The notes beneath the pieces are model-generated. The model saw only the letters and a program-made list of their open reading frames with translations, made no database searches and was not told where the DNA came from. Shown in pieces: positions 2,970 through 32,084 of a stretch of 32,084 bases of DNA. Made by a program: the position numbers and the translations under genes. Each line of letters opens with the position of its first letter. Position 1 is the first letter of the stretch. Source of the DNA: Chloroflexota bacterium (GTDB lineage Bacteria > Chloroflexota > Dehalococcoidia > Lucifugimonadales > UBA3495); the NCBI GenBank assembly GCA_022568195.1, contig JADFFS010000021.1, positions 1 through 32,084 on the forward strand, read 5' to 3'.

Positions 2970-4052
2970 TTAAACCCCTCGGATGATTCCCTCGCACATC
3001 TCGGCGCCTTGCAACACCTGGGAGACAACCGCCGACTCCCTGACGGTGTGGAAAGACTCCACGCCGATGCCCACCGGCAGTGCTACGATACCGTGCTCTT
3101 GGAACACGTTGGCGTCGGAGCCCCCGCCGGTGGCCTCCAGCCGGATTTCCATGCCAATCCGGGCCAGGGCGCGGCCGATCATCGCCACCGCAGGATGGGA
3201 GTCCGCAACGCGGTACGCCTGGTAGGTGTTGCGTATGTCCAATGTTATTTCGGCGTCGGGATGCCTGGCCCTTGCCTGGTCGAACACCCTCTGGAACTCC
3301 TGGGAGTAGCGGTCCAGTTTGGCGTTGTCCAGGCTGCGCAACTCGCCGTCCAGGAGCACCAGCTCAGGGATGATGTTCCGCTTGAGACCGCCTTCGATGC
3401 GGCCGATGTTGGCCGTGGTCTCTTGGTCGATGCGGCCCAGGGGGAGCTGGGTCAGGATTTCGGCGGCCAGGATGATGGCCGAGAGGCCCTTCTCCGGCTC
3501 CACGCCGGCGTGGGCGGACCGCCCGCGAATCTGCGCGGTTACCACGTTTTGTGAAGGCGCGGCCACCGACACCCGGTTCACGGCGCCTTCGCCGTCGAAG
3601 ACGACGCCCCGTTTGGCGGAAAGCTGGCTAAAGTCCAGGTGATGGACGCCCACCAGCCCACCCTCCTCGGCCCTGGTGAACGCCACCTCGATGGGCAGGT
3701 GTTTGTCACCGGACTCGGTCACCGTGGTGAGGGCTTCCAGCACTATGCTGACCCCTGACTTGCAATCTCCGCCCAGGATGGTGGTGCCGTCGGAGCGCAG
3801 GACGTCTCCATCCAGGACAGGCTGAATGCCTCGGCCTGGTTCCACCGTGTCCAGGTGAGCGGAAAGGAGCACGGGCTCGCCTGCTCCGGGCAGCTTGGCG
3901 ATGACATTGTTAAACGAGTCGTGGTGGACCTTGAAGCCCAGTGCCTCAAGCCGGGAGCTGACCTCCCGGTCCATTGCGTCTTCCTCGCCGGTGGGGCTAT
4001 CGATTTGGATCAGGTCGATCAAGGTCTTCAAAAGCCGGTCTCGGTTAGCCAC
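2970..4052 (-). CDS. M20 family metallopeptidase (PepT/ArgE-like)
   Basis: SPTGEED, LLSAHLDTVEPG, GGDCKSGVS, RAEEGGLVG, GGGSDANVF. Confidence 0.88.
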   Translation of the reverse strand: MANRDRLLKTLIDLIQIDSPTGEEDAMDREVSSRLEALGFKVHHDSFNNVIAKLPGAGEPVLLSAHLDTVEPGRGIQPVLDGDVLRSDGTTILGGDCKSGVSIVLEALTTVTESGDKHLPIEVAFTRAEEGGLVGVHHLDFSQLSAKRGVVFDGEGAVNRVSVAAPSQNVVTAQIRGRSAHAGVEPEKGLSAIILAAEILTQLPLGRIDQETTANIGRIEGGLKRNIIPELVLLDGELRSLDNAKLDRYSQEFQRVFDQARARHPDAEITLDIRNTYQAYRVADSHPAVAMIGRALARIGMEIRLEATGGGSDANVFQEHGIVALPVGIGVESFHTVRESAVVSQVLQGAEMCEGIIRGV

Positions 4053-4076
4053 AGCAACCTCCAGGTCCCCGGATAA

Positions 4077-4493
4077 TTAAGGGAGTGCAGCGACGGCGCT
4101 GATCTCCACTAAAAACTCTTCCAGTACCAGGCCGCTGATTATCAGCAGGGTGTTTGGCGGGTAGTCTCCGCTGGGGTAAAGCCCCGGGAACACCTGGGTG
4201 CGGGCATCGATGAAGGGCTGAATGGACTCCCTCCCCACCAGATAGGTGGTGAATTCCACCACGTTGGCGAAGGAGGTTCCCGCGCCCGTCAGGACGCTGC
4301 CGATGTTGTGCAAGACCTGGCGGGTCTGGGCCGCCACATCACCAGGGCCCACCAGGTTGCCATTCGCGTCAACGCCCACCTGACCGGCGACGTAAAGCAT
4401 ACTCCCCGCCGTGACTTTGACGGCGTGAGAATATGCGCCTAGGGGCCGGGGGGCAGTGGCGGGGTTAAAGGCAACGCGCTCAAATTGTGGCAT
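4077..4493 (-). CDS. RidA family protein (start MPQFERVAF at 4493 rather than the ORF-track 4565)
   Basis: LGAYSHAVKV..LYVAGQVGVDANG..AAQTRQVLHNI. Confidence 0.88.
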   Translation of the reverse strand: MPQFERVAFNPATAPRPLGAYSHAVKVTAGSMLYVAGQVGVDANGNLVGPGDVAAQTRQVLHNIGSVLTGAGTSFANVVEFTTYLVGRESIQPFIDARTQVFPGLYPSGDYPPNTLLIISGLVLEEFLVEISAVAALP

Positions 4494-4627
4494 CTTAGGT
4501 ATCTCCCTTCGGCGTGTCGTTGAAACCAGGCCAATCGTACCTGGGAAAATCAGCGCAGTATCCATATCCTCTAGACCCGGTTAGTATATGCGCTGCCCCG
4601 GAAAATGTAATCCCAAAATGGCCGTGG

Positions 4628-4633
4628 TATACT
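4628..4633 (+). promoter_or_regulatory. Extended -10 (TGG-TATACT) seven nt before the NUDIX ATG; implies a leaderless transcript
   Basis: GTGGTATACTCGGCTCCATG, no Shine-Dalgarno between. Confidence 0.5.
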
Positions 4634-4640
4634 CGGCTCC

Positions 4641-5093
4641 ATGGCGCCTGACGTAGGGATGCCCCAGGTCGGGGTGGGAGTGGTGTTCGTTAGAGAGGGG
4701 AAGGTATTTCTGGCCAAACGTCAGGGTTCCCACGGGGAAGATACCTGGGCGTCGGCGGGTGGCCACCTGGAGTGGGAGGAGTCCCTGGAGGATTGCGCGC
4801 GTCGTGAGGCCTTGGAGGAACTGGGAGTCACGGTGGGAGAGATGCGCTTTCTGTGCATCAGCAACATCCTCGCTTACGGGAAACACTACGTGGACGTGGA
4901 GTTTCTAGGAGACATCGGTTCCCAGGAACCCCGATTGGCTGAGCCCGAGGCCTTTTCCGAATCCGGTTGGTTCCCCCTGGACGATTTGCCCCAGCCCCTG
5001 TTCCAAGCGGTTTGGTATGCCCTGGATAGCCTGCGCACTGCATGTTACTACTACCCGGGGTCCCCGTCGTCCGCTCCTGACACCGGCCAATGA
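4641..5093 (+). CDS. NUDIX hydrolase
   Basis: NUDIX box GHLEWEESLEDCARREALEELGV. Confidence 0.9.
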   Translation: MAPDVGMPQVGVGVVFVREGKVFLAKRQGSHGEDTWASAGGHLEWEESLEDCARREALEELGVTVGEMRFLCISNILAYGKHYVDVEFLGDIGSQEPRLAEPEAFSESGWFPLDDLPQPLFQAVWYALDSLRTACYYYPGSPSSAPDTGQ

Positions 5094-5133
5094 CGCCCGC
5101 TCTTATGCTGCTTTAAGCGTTTGAAAATATCTC

Positions 5134-5211
5134 ACCGCAGAGCAAGCGGAAAGCGCCGAGCCAAACTCAATTTTGGTCCGACGGTCCCGATGACTCTGCG
5201 ATCTCTGCGGT
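5134..5211. repeat. Degenerate inverted repeat (ACCGCAGAG ... CTCTGCGATCTCTGCGGT)
   Basis: Complementary arms; similar sequence style to the repeat at 1386-1439. Confidence 0.5.
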
Positions 5212-5237
5212 TTTTCAGAGTCTCTAGGAGGATCTTG

Positions 5238-5906
5238 ATGCCACCGAAAAAAGGGCATGGATTGTTGATGGTCTACACCGACGTTCCGGCCGACGTGGAA
5301 GAGGAATTCAATCGCTGGTATGACGAAGAGCACATACCCGAGAGACTGGCGATACCGGGAGTGTTGAGCGCGGCCCGGTACGTGGCCCTGCAGGGCGGTC
5401 CCAAGCACCTGGCTTGCTATGAGCTCAGCGAACCGGAAGCGTGGCATTCCGACGCTTGGCAACACCACCTGACCAATCCCACCGAATGGTCGAAGCGGAT
5501 GTCGCCCGGCGTCGTGGGCGAAGTTTACGTGAGAAATTTATACCGGCTGATTTACCCTGACGACGTTCCCGAGGAGACGGCCCAGGCCGACATGGCTCCG
5601 GTGATGTTGGTGGGGCGTATGTCCGTGCCTCCGGCATTGGAAACCGAGTTTAACCACGCCTACAACTCGGAAAGAATGCCCACTTGCCACGCTGTCCCTG
5701 GCTACATACGGGGCCGGCGCTTCGAAGCGATCATGGGAGAACCCAAGTACATCACGGTTCACGAGATGCAATCGGTTCAAGTGTCCGAGAGCCCGGAATG
5801 GGAATCCTGGCGTACCGCGGTAACGCCCCAGTGGTCGAACAACGTCCGTCCCAAAATGGTCCATGCGCCCGGATCGCCCGGCATTTACACCCGCATCAAC
5901 CCCTAG
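5238..5906 (+). CDS. Tandem dimeric alpha/beta-barrel (EthD/DUF4286-like) protein
   Basis: Two similar halves: EFNRWYDEEHIPERLAIPGVLSAARYVALQG...PKHLACYEL and EFNHAYNSERMPTCHAVPGYIRGRRFEAIMG-EPKYITVHEM; start ATG 5238 preceded by AGGAGG. Confidence 0.65.
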   Translation: MPPKKGHGLLMVYTDVPADVEEEFNRWYDEEHIPERLAIPGVLSAARYVALQGGPKHLACYELSEPEAWHSDAWQHHLTNPTEWSKRMSPGVVGEVYVRNLYRLIYPDDVPEETAQADMAPVMLVGRMSVPPALETEFNHAYNSERMPTCHAVPGYIRGRRFEAIMGEPKYITVHEMQSVQVSESPEWESWRTAVTPQWSNNVRPKMVHAPGSPGIYTRINP

Positions 5907-6028
5907 CAGAGCCATCGTCGGGGCAGCCGGTCATCCTTCCCTCTCAGATAGTGAGGGGCCAAGGGTTCATTAACATAAAATGCCCCATGCTACTACTAGA
6001 ACTGTAGCCAAGCCGGGTACGAATCTGG

Positions 6029-6034
6029 TATAAT
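6029..6034 (+). promoter_or_regulatory. Extended -10 TGG-TATAAT upstream of gyrB
   Basis: CTGGTATAATG; -35 weak. Confidence 0.55.
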
Positions 6035-6050
6035 GTATACAATATGTTGT

Positions 6051-6083
6051 AGGTAGAGGTACCCCACTCCTCTACTTATTTTT
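6051..6083 (+). terminator. Hairpin plus U-rich tract in the gyrB 5' leader (attenuator-like)
   Basis: AGGTAGAGG-TACCCCACT-CCTCTACTT then ATTTTT. Confidence 0.55.
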
Positions 6084-6089
6084 GTCTAG

Positions 6090-8066
<1,977 letters not shown>

Positions 8067-29381: not shown

Positions 29382-29912
29382 TCAGCCGGCCTCCAAAACG
29401 GTGTGGCCGTTGGACCGTGGGCAAGCGTGTCCATCGGGGTTTATGGGCTGTCCGCACAGGAAGCAAAGCGGGCGTCCGGCGGAGCAAATCCGAAGGGCCT
29501 CCTCGGCTATGGTTTCGGCTTGGGCGATGGATATCGAGAAACCGACAGAGGCCGGTTCCTCGCTGGCCCCCTCTTCCTCGCGTTCGTAGGCCACCAAACG
29601 GAAAGAGTTACTGTCTGGGTCGTGGCTTAACATGATCTGGCCCGCTTTGAAATCGATGGAAATCCCTTCGCCGGACCATTCAGGCTCGCTGCTCACACCA
29701 TGTCGCTGCTTGTCCTCCAGCGACATAGCGCTCACCACCTCTTGAAGATAGATTCCAAGCTGAAAAAGCTGCTCCTTCTCCAGCCATACCGTACAGTTGG
29801 CGTTGCCTGCCTCGATAACCAGGTTAAAAGTACGCTGACCTGGCTCGCCAAAGGTTCGCGGTTCGATGTAGGAGATTGACCCCAACGAATATTTGACTTC
29901 GCGCTGCTCCAT
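29382..29912 (-). CDS. DUF3090 family protein
   Basis: MEQREVKYSLGSISYIEPRTFGEPGQRTFNLVIEAGNANCTVWLEKEQLFQLGIYL; C-terminal CFLCGQPINPDGHACPRSNGH. Confidence 0.88.
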   Translation of the reverse strand: MEQREVKYSLGSISYIEPRTFGEPGQRTFNLVIEAGNANCTVWLEKEQLFQLGIYLQEVVSAMSLEDKQRHGVSSEPEWSGEGISIDFKAGQIMLSHDPDSNSFRLVAYEREEEGASEEPASVGFSISIAQAETIAEEALRICSAGRPLCFLCGQPINPDGHACPRSNGHTVLEAG

Positions 29913-30034
29913 GGCAATTATGATAAACCGGGGAATCGTTACTCGCAAGGGAGAGGTTAGGCAAAATTTCCACCAGAAATGCGGCCGTTTTCGGATGTTG
30001 GGCCGTCAGGTTCCCGGAGAACGTCCACCGCCGC

Positions 30035-30079
30035 CCTAGGCCACGAAGCTGCGGGAGCGGTATTGCAGTGTCTCGGCCA
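30035..30079. repeat. 45-bp perfect direct repeat of the comM 3' end (distal copy)
   Basis: CCTAGGCCACGAAGCTGCGGGAGCGGTATTGCAGTGTCTCGGCCA, identical to 30720-30764. Confidence 0.97.
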
Positions 30080-30106
30080 GGCCCGCCCTGAGCGCCGCCG
30101 AAGGGT
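30080..30106. repeat. REP-like intergenic element adjoining the distal direct repeat
   Basis: GCCCGCCCTGAGCGCCGCCGAAGGGTG, resembling the widespread CCTGAGC-N-TCGAAGG type intergenic element. Confidence 0.45.
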
Positions 30107-30240
30107 GCGCCACGCGCACCGTATTCGCGTTCCGCTGGCCTGGCATCCAGGTTCTGGTCACAGTAATTTAGACCTGTGTTGCTAGGTACTCCGCCATGCG
30201 AAAGTTGGGCGGGACGGGGGAGCACCAATTGAGGGCCCAC

Positions 30241-30456
30241 TCAGATAGCAGTGATGTTCTCTAAGTGGACTTGTGGTTGGTCCCTGCTAATGCCCAGGTG
30301 TATGGAGGCCGCCAGCACCTCAATGCCAACCACTTCCTCGCCCTGGCCCAAGTCAATGGCGATGTCTTTCGTTAGGTGGATGGTGGTCACTTGCGTAGGT
30401 CCCTGCTTGAAGGAGATGTACGCGGCATCCACCTCCGGATCATACGTTATCTTCAT
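30241..30456 (-). CDS. DUF2283 family protein (antitoxin-like)
   Basis: MKITYDPEVDAAYISFKQGPTQVTTIHLTKDIAIDLGQGEEVVGIEVLAASIHLG. Confidence 0.9.
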   Translation of the reverse strand: MKITYDPEVDAAYISFKQGPTQVTTIHLTKDIAIDLGQGEEVVGIEVLAASIHLGISRDQPQVHLENITAI

Positions 30457-30718
30457 ATGTTACCTCCAAAGCAGTAAACGTACACCGTCACTACGACGAA
30501 CCTGTCGGTTCCTCGGCAACAATGGGCCGCACCTGTTTGGTGGAGTAGATCCAGCCCTTCTATTCCCTACTGTACGGAAAGTTCTTGAGAAAGGATAGGA
30601 GTCCACGTTCTGCTTCTGCCCGGTCCCCAGACGAGATGGCCTCCTCGATTTCGGATTCGCTGGCGCCTCGGTCCTCCATCTGGTCGCGGGCATGCTGCGA
30701 GAGTATTACCGGTTTCAC
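30453..30718 (-). pseudogene. DUF4258 (toxin-like) gene, disrupted by TAG at 30560-30562 and a 1-nt deletion near 30501-30508
   Basis: VKPVILSQHARDQMEDRGASESEIEEAISSG...FLKNFPYSRE*KGWIYSTKQVRPIVAEEP(fs)RFVVVTVYVYCFGGNI; restored frame ends ATGA-overlapping the DUF2283 ATG. Confidence 0.75.
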
Positions 30719-30719
30719 T

Positions 30720-30764
30720 CCTAGGCCACGAAGCTGCGGGAGCGGTATTGCAGTGTCTCGGCCA
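30720..30764. repeat. 45-bp direct repeat, copy within the 3' end of comM
   Basis: Identical to 30035-30079. Confidence 0.97.
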
Positions 30765-32084
30765 AGTGCGCCACGCTGATGTCTTTGGCCCCGTCCAGGT
30801 CGGCAATGGTCCGCGACACCTTGAGAATGCGATGAAAGGCCCTGGCCGATAGGCTCAGCCGCTGGGTCGCTGCCTGAAGCAAGCCTCTGGCGCTATCGTC
30901 CAGCGGGCAGGCCTTCCAGACCTCGGACGGGCCCATCTCCGCGTTGCAAAGGAACCCGCTGTCGCGGAACCTCTCCTCCTGGATCTGTCGCGCACGCTCC
31001 ACCCTCAGGCGCACCTGGGACGAGTCTTCCACCGGCTCCTCGTCGACCAGCTTCTCATACTCCACTGGGGGGACTTCCGCGAAGACGTCGATGCGGTCGA
31101 GCAGCGGCCCGCTGATTCGCTTTTGATAACGAGCGACGATGGAAGGAGAGCAGGTGCACTCGGTGCGAGGGTGGGTGTGGAAGCCGCAAGGACACGGGTT
31201 CATGGCCGCCACCATCATGAAGCTGGCAGGGTAGGTCACGGTTCCAGTGACCCGAGTGATGGTCACCGTCTTGTCCTCCAGGGGTTGCCGCAATGACTCC
31301 AGGGCCGTGTGGGTAAACTCGGGCAGTTCGTCAAGGAAGAGGACGCCCCGGTGGCTCAGTGTAATTTCCCCGGGACGCAGGGTTCTCCCACCCCCAACCA
31401 ATCCCGCGTTGGAAATGGTGTAGTGAGGAGCGCGAAAGGGCCGTTGGGTTATCAGTGGGCTGTCCCCGGGCAGATTGCCGCTGACGCTGTAAATCTTGGT
31501 TACCTCCAGCGCCTCTGCCGCAGACATGCTGGGCAGAATGGAGGGCAGGCACCGGGCCAACAGGGTTTTGCCGCTGCCCGGAGGACCGTTGAACAGCAGG
31601 TTGTGGAAGCCGGCGGCGGCCACCTCCAACGCTCGTTTGGCGTGCTCTTGGCCCTTTACGTGGGCCAGGTTCATGCTGTCGGCTGGGATGCCACCATTTA
31701 CGGGCACCACGCCGGTGCTGGCCAAGGGGGTTATTTCCGACTCGCCCCGCAGGTGGCTGATCAACTCGGTAAGGGTCGAAGTCGGATACACCTGAAGACC
31801 ATCCACCAGAGCGGCCTCGGCGGCGTCTACCGTGGGTACGTGCACCGTAGGGAAGCCCTGGTCCCGGGCCACCGACACCATGGCCAGGACGCCGGTGGTG
31901 TGGCGCAAGCTGCCGTCCAGAGACAGCTCGCCCAGAAAGATGGTGTTGCCCTGGGGAGGTTGCACCTGCCCAGAACTCACCAGGATGCCAACGGCTATGG
32001 GCAGGTCGTAGGCCGGACCCGCTTTTTTCACGTCGGCCGGGGCCAGGTTGACCGTGATGCGGCGCATAGGGAACTCGCAACCGC
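30721..32084 (-). CDS. comM: YifB/ComM family Mg chelatase-like AAA ATPase (partial, N-terminus off the window edge)
   Basis: MRRITVNLAPADVKKAGPAYDLPIAVGIL, GPPGSGKTLLARCLPSILP, RPFRAPHYTISNAGLVGGG, NPCPCG. Confidence 0.95.
   Translation of the reverse strand, partial: GCEFPMRRITVNLAPADVKKAGPAYDLPIAVGILVSSGQVQPPQGNTIFLGELSLDGSLRHTTGVLAMVSVARDQGFPTVHVPTVDAAEAALVDGLQVYPTSTLTELISHLRGESEITPLASTGVVPVNGGIPADSMNLAHVKGQEHAKRALEVAAAGFHNLLFNGPPGSGKTLLARCLPSILPSMSAAEALEVTKIYSVSGNLPGDSPLITQRPFRAPHYTISNAGLVGGGRTLRPGEITLSHRGVLFLDELPEFTHTALESLRQPLEDKTVTITRVTGTVTYPASFMMVAAMNPCPCGFHTHPRTECTCSPSIVARYQKRISGPLLDRIDVFAEVPPVEYEKLVDEEPVEDSSQVRLRVERARQIQEERFRDSGFLCNAEMGPSEVWKACPLDDSARGLLQAATQRLSLSARAFHRILKVSRTIADLDGAKDISVAHLAETLQYRSRSFVA

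What the first reader, a model, noticed from the sequence alone, without database searches (positions are those of the whole stretch)
30035..30764. Toxin/antitoxin-like cassette at the 3' end of comM, bracketed by 45-bp perfect direct repeats of the comM tail
Seen: CCTAGGCCACGAAGCTGCGGGAGCGGTATTGCAGTGTCTCGGCCA occurs at 30035-30079 and 30720-30764. It covers the last 14 codons of comM (AETLQYRSRSFVA plus stop). The 640 bp between the copies holds only a DUF2283 ORF, a DUF4258-type ORF and a short REP-like element. Deleting one repeat plus the interval (685 bp) would restore an uninterrupted comM and its downstream sequence. Established: integrative elements often insert at gene 3' ends and regenerate the target end as a direct repeat. 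Inference: this is a minimal inserted cassette or the remnant of one. No recombinase is present, so it would have moved in trans or by recombination.
Basis: partly seen in the sequence, partly recalled or inferred. Interest (0 to 1): 0.78.

Follow-up and report, generated by a model that had tools for sequence, protein, structure and literature searches.

The report
Toxin-antitoxin cassette with duplicated gene tail
A small toxin-antitoxin gene pair has slipped in directly behind the housekeeping gene comM and left a second copy of the gene's tail behind it; the same arrangement recurs in many related bacteria and behind at least seven different genes, so it appears to be a general, recombinase-free way for such gene pairs to settle in genomes.

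Summary
A perfect 45-bp copy of comM's last 13 codons plus stop lies 685 bp downstream, with a DUF4258-DUF2283 (toxin-antitoxin-like) pair between the copies; there are only two copies in the 3.7-Mb assembly. The insertion reading holds and turns out to be general. Relatives G015 and G025 have one tail, no cassette and a gap of about 110 bp (window: 809-685 = about 124). Across the order, and in public MAGs, I found 18 DUF2283 loci where an upstream gene's 3' tail recurs just behind the unit: comM (8), an alpha/beta-hydrolase (4), polA, queA, hemB, miaB, uvrA, one unknown. Direct flanking repeats occur at 22/145 loci (inverted control 2/145). comM tail repeats occur in 8/12 genomes with the pair downstream of comM and 0/25 without. 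G108 and G114 carry arrays in which successive cassettes are separated by comM tails. Cassettes are horizontally acquired: DUF2283 is 81-85% identical between genomes whose ComM is only 65-68% identical. No recombinase is present. Best model: insertion-duplication by homologous recombination in the gene tail, with tail copies serving as homology arms and TA addiction stabilising the product. In the window the toxin gene is broken, so this copy is probably a remnant.

The parts
30721..32067 (-). comM/yifB (Mg chelatase-like AAA ATPase); contig ends inside its 5' part
   Evidence: Pfam PF01078/PF13335/PF13541; TIGR00368 1e-150
30720..30764 (-). proximal tail copy: last 13 codons + stop of functional comM
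   Evidence: 45-bp perfect repeat
30560..30718 (-). DUF4258 (RelE/ParE-superfamily toxin family) ORF, start codon 2 nt after the comM stop; truncated by TAG
   Evidence: PF14076 5e-6; tblastn with intact homologue reads through an in-frame stop, 30715-30509
30474..30559 (-). remnant 3' part of the DUF4258 gene (continues in frame after the TAG, then changes frame)
   Evidence: tblastn segments 30715-30509 (frame -1) and 30497-30474 (frame -3), the second only a weak hit (E=1.4) that matches family residues
30241..30456 (-). DUF2283 ORF (presumed antitoxin), intact, 71 aa
   Evidence: PF10049 6.6e-14
30105..30115 (-). outer 11 nt of the distal comM tail copy (GCGTGGCGCAC)
   Evidence: sequence identity with comM
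30080..30104 (-). REP-like insert within the distal tail copy at AC^CTGG
   Evidence: motif TTCGGCNNNGCTCANGGCNGG, 10 copies in genome; related inserts at equivalent comM sites in G024, G046, G108
30035..30079 (-). distal (second) tail copy of comM
   Evidence: 45-bp perfect repeat
29382..29948 (-). DUF3090 gene (likely ATG start at 29912), ancestral downstream neighbour of comM; right border of the insertion site
   Evidence: PF11290 1.4e-24; next to comM in G013, G015, G002, G030, G025

Best explanation
This is a horizontally acquired DUF4258-DUF2283 toxin-antitoxin-type cassette, added (not substituted) exactly at the stop codon of comM, with the displaced or co-imported comM tail left behind it as a direct repeat. 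Shown: the structure; the empty site in relatives; its recurrence at eight comM loci and at seven or more other genes; cassette arrays with tail copies between them; horizontal acquisition; absence of any recombinase in the unit. Inferred: incoming DNA carrying [gene tail - TA pair (- tail)] pairs with the recipient gene's tail by RecA-type homologous recombination. The first events are probably one-sided (homology in the tail, illegitimate join at the other end). Once tail-TA-tail exists, the two tails act as homology arms that let the cassette integrate additively into any tail-matching gene end and be deleted again. Such direct-repeat insertions are normally unstable; TA addiction would select for the ones that carry a TA pair. 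Docking right at the stop lets the pair use the target gene's transcription and restores that gene. In the window the toxin is broken, so the unit is a decaying remnant.
For: Direct flanking repeats at 22/145 DUF2283 loci vs 2/145 inverted and 1 cross-pair control (Fisher 1.7e-5). The repeat is the gene's 3' tail in 16 of them plus L213 and L232: comM, alpha/beta-hydrolase, polA, queA, hemB, miaB, uvrA, one unknown. comM tail repeats 8/12 with the pair vs 0/25 without (Fisher 1.3e-5). Empty site in G015 and G025, gap about 110 bp vs about 124 bp predicted after removing 685 bp. Arrays: G108 comM-[DUF4258/DUF2283]-tail-[DUF4258/MqsA-like]-tail-[Kelch]-tail; G114 comM-[221 aa]-tail-[DUF4258/DUF2283]-tail. 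Cassette/comM incongruence: DUF2283 81% with ComM 65% (L217-L218), 85% with 68% (L212-L213), but 65% with ComM 77% within the window's family (L216-L218). Differences between paired tails concentrate at third codon positions (63/107, p=8e-8), as expected if the two tails come from different functional genes. In L213, 4 of 6 tail mismatches lie in the last 14 nt, as expected of a recombination join near the stop. Upstream stops cluster 240-340 nt before DUF2283, i.e. at the DUF4258 start. One-sided-homology insertion is described for effector-immunity modules (PMC5361080).
Against: Most DUF2283 loci, including 4 of 12 comM ones, show no detectable tail repeat, so some arrivals were clean, used other routes, or the repeat has decayed. 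Which tail is foreign is not settled: in G024 the proximal tail is nearer to its congener (92% vs 86%), in G109 both tails are equally distant from the congener. No donor molecule, circle or excised junction was seen. The recurrent REP-like insert in distal comM tails is unexplained. Addiction is inferred from family membership, and the window's own toxin is broken. The window's DUF4258 type differs from the other comM-docked ones.
Confidence: 0.6

Rival explanations
1. Site-specific integration in trans: a tyrosine-recombinase-type enzyme elsewhere recognises conserved gene-end sequences (for comM the HLAEALQYRPR stretch) and inserts circular cassettes whose attachment site is a copy of the gene tail.
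For: Insertion is exactly at gene 3' ends; tails are regenerated; arrays resemble tandem accretion. The comM tail contains a conserved stretch across families.
Against: Repeat length (about 40 to over 200 bp), 5' boundary and sequence vary; many unrelated target genes; no integrase in any cassette; REP-like inserts differ in position.
Confidence: 0.2
2. Local tandem duplication: the pair was already downstream of comM, and the tail was duplicated later by replication slippage or unequal crossing-over.
For: In the window both copies are identical over 45 bp, so a recent local copy is possible. comM-TA without a tail repeat exists (G013, L220, L267).
Against: Paired tails differ mainly at third codon positions in several genomes; none of 25 comM loci without the pair shows a tail duplication; arrays alternate different cassettes with tails; cassettes are horizontally acquired.
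Confidence: 0.12
3. Homing-endonuclease-like mobility: DUF4258 or another encoded nuclease cuts the tail of empty genes and the cassette is copied in, bringing a resistant tail, as in fungal mitochondrial mORFs.
For: Architecture is essentially the same as mORF insertions with C-terminal duplication (PMC3630166).
Against: DUF4258 is classed with RelE/ParE-type (mostly RNase) toxins, not DNA endonucleases (PMC11980606); no homing-endonuclease domain in the units; some insertions carry DUF2283 alone (L059, L157, L170).
Confidence: 0.05
4. Assembly artefact of a metagenome-derived contig.
For: The genome is a draft of 293 contigs with 6.6% contamination.
Against: Same structure in many assemblies from unrelated projects, for several genes, with diverged (not identical) repeats.
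Confidence: 0.03

Closest known systems
Fungal mitochondrial mORFs with duplicated gene C-termini (atp6, atp9, cox2, nad3; Allomyces, Glomus; PMC3630166)
   Same: A small mobile ORF lies between a functional gene 3' end and a displaced second copy of that 3' end; horizontally acquired; different target genes.
   Different: mORFs encode a homing endonuclease that drives mobility; here the cargo is a toxin-antitoxin-type pair and no endonuclease is found; bacterial chromosomes; cassette arrays form.
Displaced effector 3' ends and orphan immunity arrays of Vibrio T6SS and Rhs/CDI loci (PMC5361080)
   Same: Successive horizontal modules are inserted at a gene's 3' region, pushing older 3' ends downstream into arrays; one-sided homologous (homology-facilitated illegitimate) recombination is the proposed mechanism.
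   Different: There the gene end itself is the variable toxin domain and is replaced; here a constant housekeeping gene keeps its own end and the cargo is independent of it.
Integron gene cassettes (many carry TA pairs)
   Same: Small promoter-poor cassettes, often TA, in tandem arrays separated by a repeated sequence.
   Different: The repeat is a copy of a protein-coding gene tail that varies with the target, not attC; no IntI.
Integrative elements at gene 3' ends (islands at tRNA or protein-gene ends)
   Same: Insertion at the 3' end with the target end duplicated as a direct repeat; tandem accretion.
   Different: No integrase, about 0.6 kb in size, repeats of variable length.
DUF4258 (PF14076) type II TA toxins of the RelE/ParE (BECR) superfamily (PMC11980606)
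   Same: DUF4258 in a two-gene unit; one G108 array cassette pairs DUF4258 with an MqsA-like protein, a partner known from fusions.
   Different: The partner here is DUF2283, for which no paper was found in the library; the window's toxin is broken.

Membership tests
DUF4258-type type II toxin-antitoxin module | DUF4258 toxin domain next to a small partner gene in one operon | tested here: met
   PF14076 and PF10049 hits on adjacent same-strand ORFs; pairs also at other loci
DUF4258-type type II toxin-antitoxin module | Intact toxin reading frame in this copy | tested here: not met
   In-frame TAG and frame change vs intact homologue
DUF4258-type type II toxin-antitoxin module | Toxicity neutralised by DUF2283 | not testable with these tools
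   Needs expression assays
Integron gene cassette | attC recombination site as the repeat | tested here: not met
   Repeat is the 3' coding tail of the upstream gene, different for each target
Integron gene cassette | IntI integrase nearby | tested here: not met
   None between the repeats and none among array ORFs examined; the rest of the genome was not searched
Integrase-bearing genomic island at a gene 3' end | Own integrase | tested here: not met
   640-bp interval holds only DUF4258 and DUF2283
Integrase-bearing genomic island at a gene 3' end | Target 3' end duplicated as direct repeats; empty site in relatives | tested here: met
   45-bp repeat; single tail and about 110-bp gap in G015/G025
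mORF / homing-endonuclease insertion | Encodes a homing endonuclease | tested here: not met
   Pfam scans
mORF / homing-endonuclease insertion | Proximal tail foreign, distal tail native | tested here: inconclusive
   L213 suggests foreign last codons proximally; G024 suggests the opposite; G109 equal
Insertion by homology-facilitated recombination (T6SS/Rhs-like displacement) | One-sided homology with displaced 3' ends and arrays | tested here: met
   Displaced tails and arrays; the mechanism itself was not observed

The most novel reading that the evidence does not exclude
Tail-TA-tail units are a distinct class of recombinase-free mobile cassette: the duplicated host-gene tail serves as both address label and homology arms, cells' own recombination moves the unit between gene ends across families, and toxin-antitoxin addiction keeps the otherwise unstable duplication and lets arrays of cassettes build up behind housekeeping genes.
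Probability: 0.35. Interest if true: 0.85.

Novelty: new variant of a known kind. Interest (0 to 1): 0.7.

Why it matters
How chromosomal toxin-antitoxin pairs spread without transposases or integrases is an open question. These loci give a concrete, repeatable anatomy (exact docking at a stop codon, duplicated gene tail, arrays), many natural replicates at known housekeeping genes, and a testable proposal: gene tails act as homology arms and addiction stabilises the duplication. It also shows that partial gene copies behind housekeeping genes can mark past insertions.

Tried and rejected
Assembly artefact: rejected, same structure in many independent assemblies with diverged repeats. Fixed attachment site or integron attC: rejected as the general explanation, since the repeat is each target gene's own tail with variable length. 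In some other phyla (L240, L248, L256) flanking repeats are non-coding and L248/L256 are also positive in the inverted control; I did not count them. REP-like element as the cassette's boundary: considered because it sits at the distal tail in the window, G024, G046 and G108, but in G024 comM sequence lies on both sides of it, so it is treated as a later insertion at ACCTGG. Simple local duplication followed by decay: disfavoured by the third-codon-position bias. Protein-level tail search without composition correction gave 88/296 control hits and was discarded in favour of nucleotide tests; one search returned nothing because an invalid tblastn option was used. Random-gene control: a stricter tail test gave 14/286 in control genes and 11/133 at DUF2283 loci, so raw counts need inspection; the seven control hits examined were tandem arrays, interspersed repeats or doubtful ORFs, the other seven lie in the same regions. 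A structure search with a DUF4258 sequence gave no relative in the PDB by sequence. Window DUF2283 has no match in phages and only about 41%-identical matches on Thermus plasmids.

Full report
The observation. The 45-bp repeat at 30035-30079 and 30720-30764 is exact and occurs only twice in the 293-contig assembly; the window is the complete contig C280. On the minus strand it is the exact 3' end of comM (13 codons, stop, 1 nt). Identity stops 1 nt behind the stop, where the cassette begins. The distal copy continues for another 11 nt of comM beyond a 25-bp REP-like insert. Between the copies are a DUF4258 ORF whose GTG start lies 2 nt behind the comM stop, and an intact DUF2283 ORF. The DUF4258 gene is broken by a TAG and a frame change.

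Empty site. In the window's family comM is followed by the DUF3090 gene in several genera. In G015 and G025 the two genes are about 110 bp apart with a single comM tail. The window has 809 bp between the comM stop and the likely ATG of DUF3090 (29912); removing 685 bp leaves about 124 bp, close to the empty sites. These relatives are of other genera, so this is an anatomical rather than a nucleotide-exact empty site.

Recurrence. A first search of comM flanks in 59 relatives already showed G024 (SAR202 cluster bacterium Io17-Chloro-G2) with comM-DUF4258-DUF2283-second comM tail of about 200 bp. A survey of DUF2283 loci in the family and order, with 145 loci usable, found direct repeats flanking the unit at 22 loci, against 2 when the upstream sequence was reverse-complemented and 1 when paired with another locus (Fisher 1.7e-5). 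In 16 the repeat is the 3' tail of the upstream gene. A search in named genomes added L213 and L232. The 18 loci comprise comM in eight genomes (window, G024, G046, G108, G109, G114, L213, L232), an alpha/beta-hydrolase in four (G009, G020, G027, G032), and polA, queA, hemB, miaB, uvrA and one unidentified gene. comM tail repeats were found in 8 of 12 genomes with the pair downstream of comM (in G114 it sits on a tail copy behind an intervening gene) and in none of 25 without it. A control of 286 genes from random 20-kb stretches gave 14 formal hits; the seven examined were tandem arrays, interspersed repeats or doubtful ORFs, none a gene tail flanking a small cassette, and the other seven lie in the same regions.

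Arrays. In G108 comM is followed by DUF4258/DUF2283, a comM tail, a second TA-like pair (DUF4258 plus MqsA-like protein), another tail starting 3 nt behind that pair's stop, a Kelch-repeat gene, and a comM fragment of about 350 bp. In G114 comM is followed by a 221-aa gene, a comM tail, DUF4258/DUF2283 docked on that tail, and another tail. In G020 the hydrolase tail copy is followed by a further, decayed DUF2283. In L213 the distal comM tail (TAA) is directly followed by the ATG of a HEPN gene with a nucleotidyltransferase partner. So insertions accumulate at the same gene end.

Horizontal acquisition. Among comM-docked pairs, DUF2283 of the SAR202 genome (L218) is 81% identical to that of another family (L217) although their ComM proteins are 65% identical; L212 and L213 share 85% in DUF2283 and 68% in ComM; while L216 and L218, of one family with ComM 77% identical, share only 65% in DUF2283. 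The cassettes therefore reached the comM end separately from comM's own descent. ComM was the commonest upstream gene (11 of 166 distinct ones), and upstream stops cluster 240-340 nt before DUF2283, i.e. at the DUF4258 start.

Mechanism. Shown: additive insertion precisely at the stop, tail duplication of variable length, arrays, horizontal acquisition, no recombinase in the unit. Differences between paired tails fall mainly on third codon positions (63 of 107, p = 8e-8), so in several genomes the two tails probably derive from different functional genes rather than from decay of a local duplicate; G024 and G109 supply most of the sites. In L213 the tails are almost identical over 136 nt but 4 of 6 differences lie in the last 14 nt, which fits a recombination join close to the stop. 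Polarity is not settled: in G024 the proximal tail looks native, in G109 neither is closer to the congener. I favour insertion by homologous recombination in the gene tail, first with an illegitimate join on the other side (as proposed for T6SS and Rhs modules, PMC5361080), later using both tails as homology arms; retention of an otherwise unstable repeat would be favoured by addiction. The mechanism is inferred; no intermediate was seen.

Known relatives. The anatomy is closest to mORF insertions in fungal mitochondria, where a gene's C-terminal duplicate lies behind the inserted ORF (PMC3630166), but those carry a homing endonuclease. DUF4258 is a recognised RelE/ParE-superfamily toxin family of unknown target, also found fused to MqsA (PMC11980606); no paper in the library mentions DUF2283, and none combines toxin-antitoxin with homology-facilitated illegitimate recombination. 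The library covers only openly licensed papers, so prior description elsewhere cannot be excluded.

Verdict. Its interest lies in the generality: a recurrent, recombinase-free way for TA cassettes to settle, and accumulate, behind housekeeping genes.

Noticed in passing
L227 (JACQUK010000141, G108) 3763-6830: Array of three cassettes behind comM separated by comM tail copies, including a second TA-like pair (DUF4258 + MqsA-like) and a Kelch-repeat gene.
   Followed up: partly
window 30080-30104; L218, L212, L227 distal comM tails: A REP-like insert sits in the distal comM tail at AC^CTGG in several genomes, independently as far as can be seen; only 10 copies of the motif in the window's genome.
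   Followed up: partly
L213 4409-5121: A HEPN-nucleotidyltransferase pair is docked directly on the stop codon (TAAATG) of the displaced comM tail.
   Followed up: partly
L127/L034 (G000 C20:15128-15527): A second, intact DUF4258-DUF2283 pair in the same genome lies between two amidase genes, its start codon 2 nt behind the first amidase stop, without tail repeat.
   Followed up: yes
L168 (G038 C3): Reverse case: the pair lies between a truncated copy of a gene's start and the gene itself (head duplication).
   Followed up: no
L244, L246 (Dehalococcoidia): The repeat flanking the unit is the upstream gene's 3' untranslated region with its terminator hairpin (84 bp, 88% in L244) rather than coding sequence.
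   Followed up: no
comM-DUF3090 interval in L006 (G002) and L019 (G030): Other genes (a cupin-like ORF, a 139-aa ORF) occupy this interval in relatives, so it is a plastic site.
   Followed up: no
L059 (G032 C92) 542-919: A small GIY-YIG-like ORF lies between inverted copies of a palindromic repeat just behind a hydrolase tail copy.
   Followed up: no
Thermus plasmids NC_021187.1 and others: DUF2283 relatives (about 41% identical) occur on small Thermus plasmids, possible vehicles.
   Followed up: no
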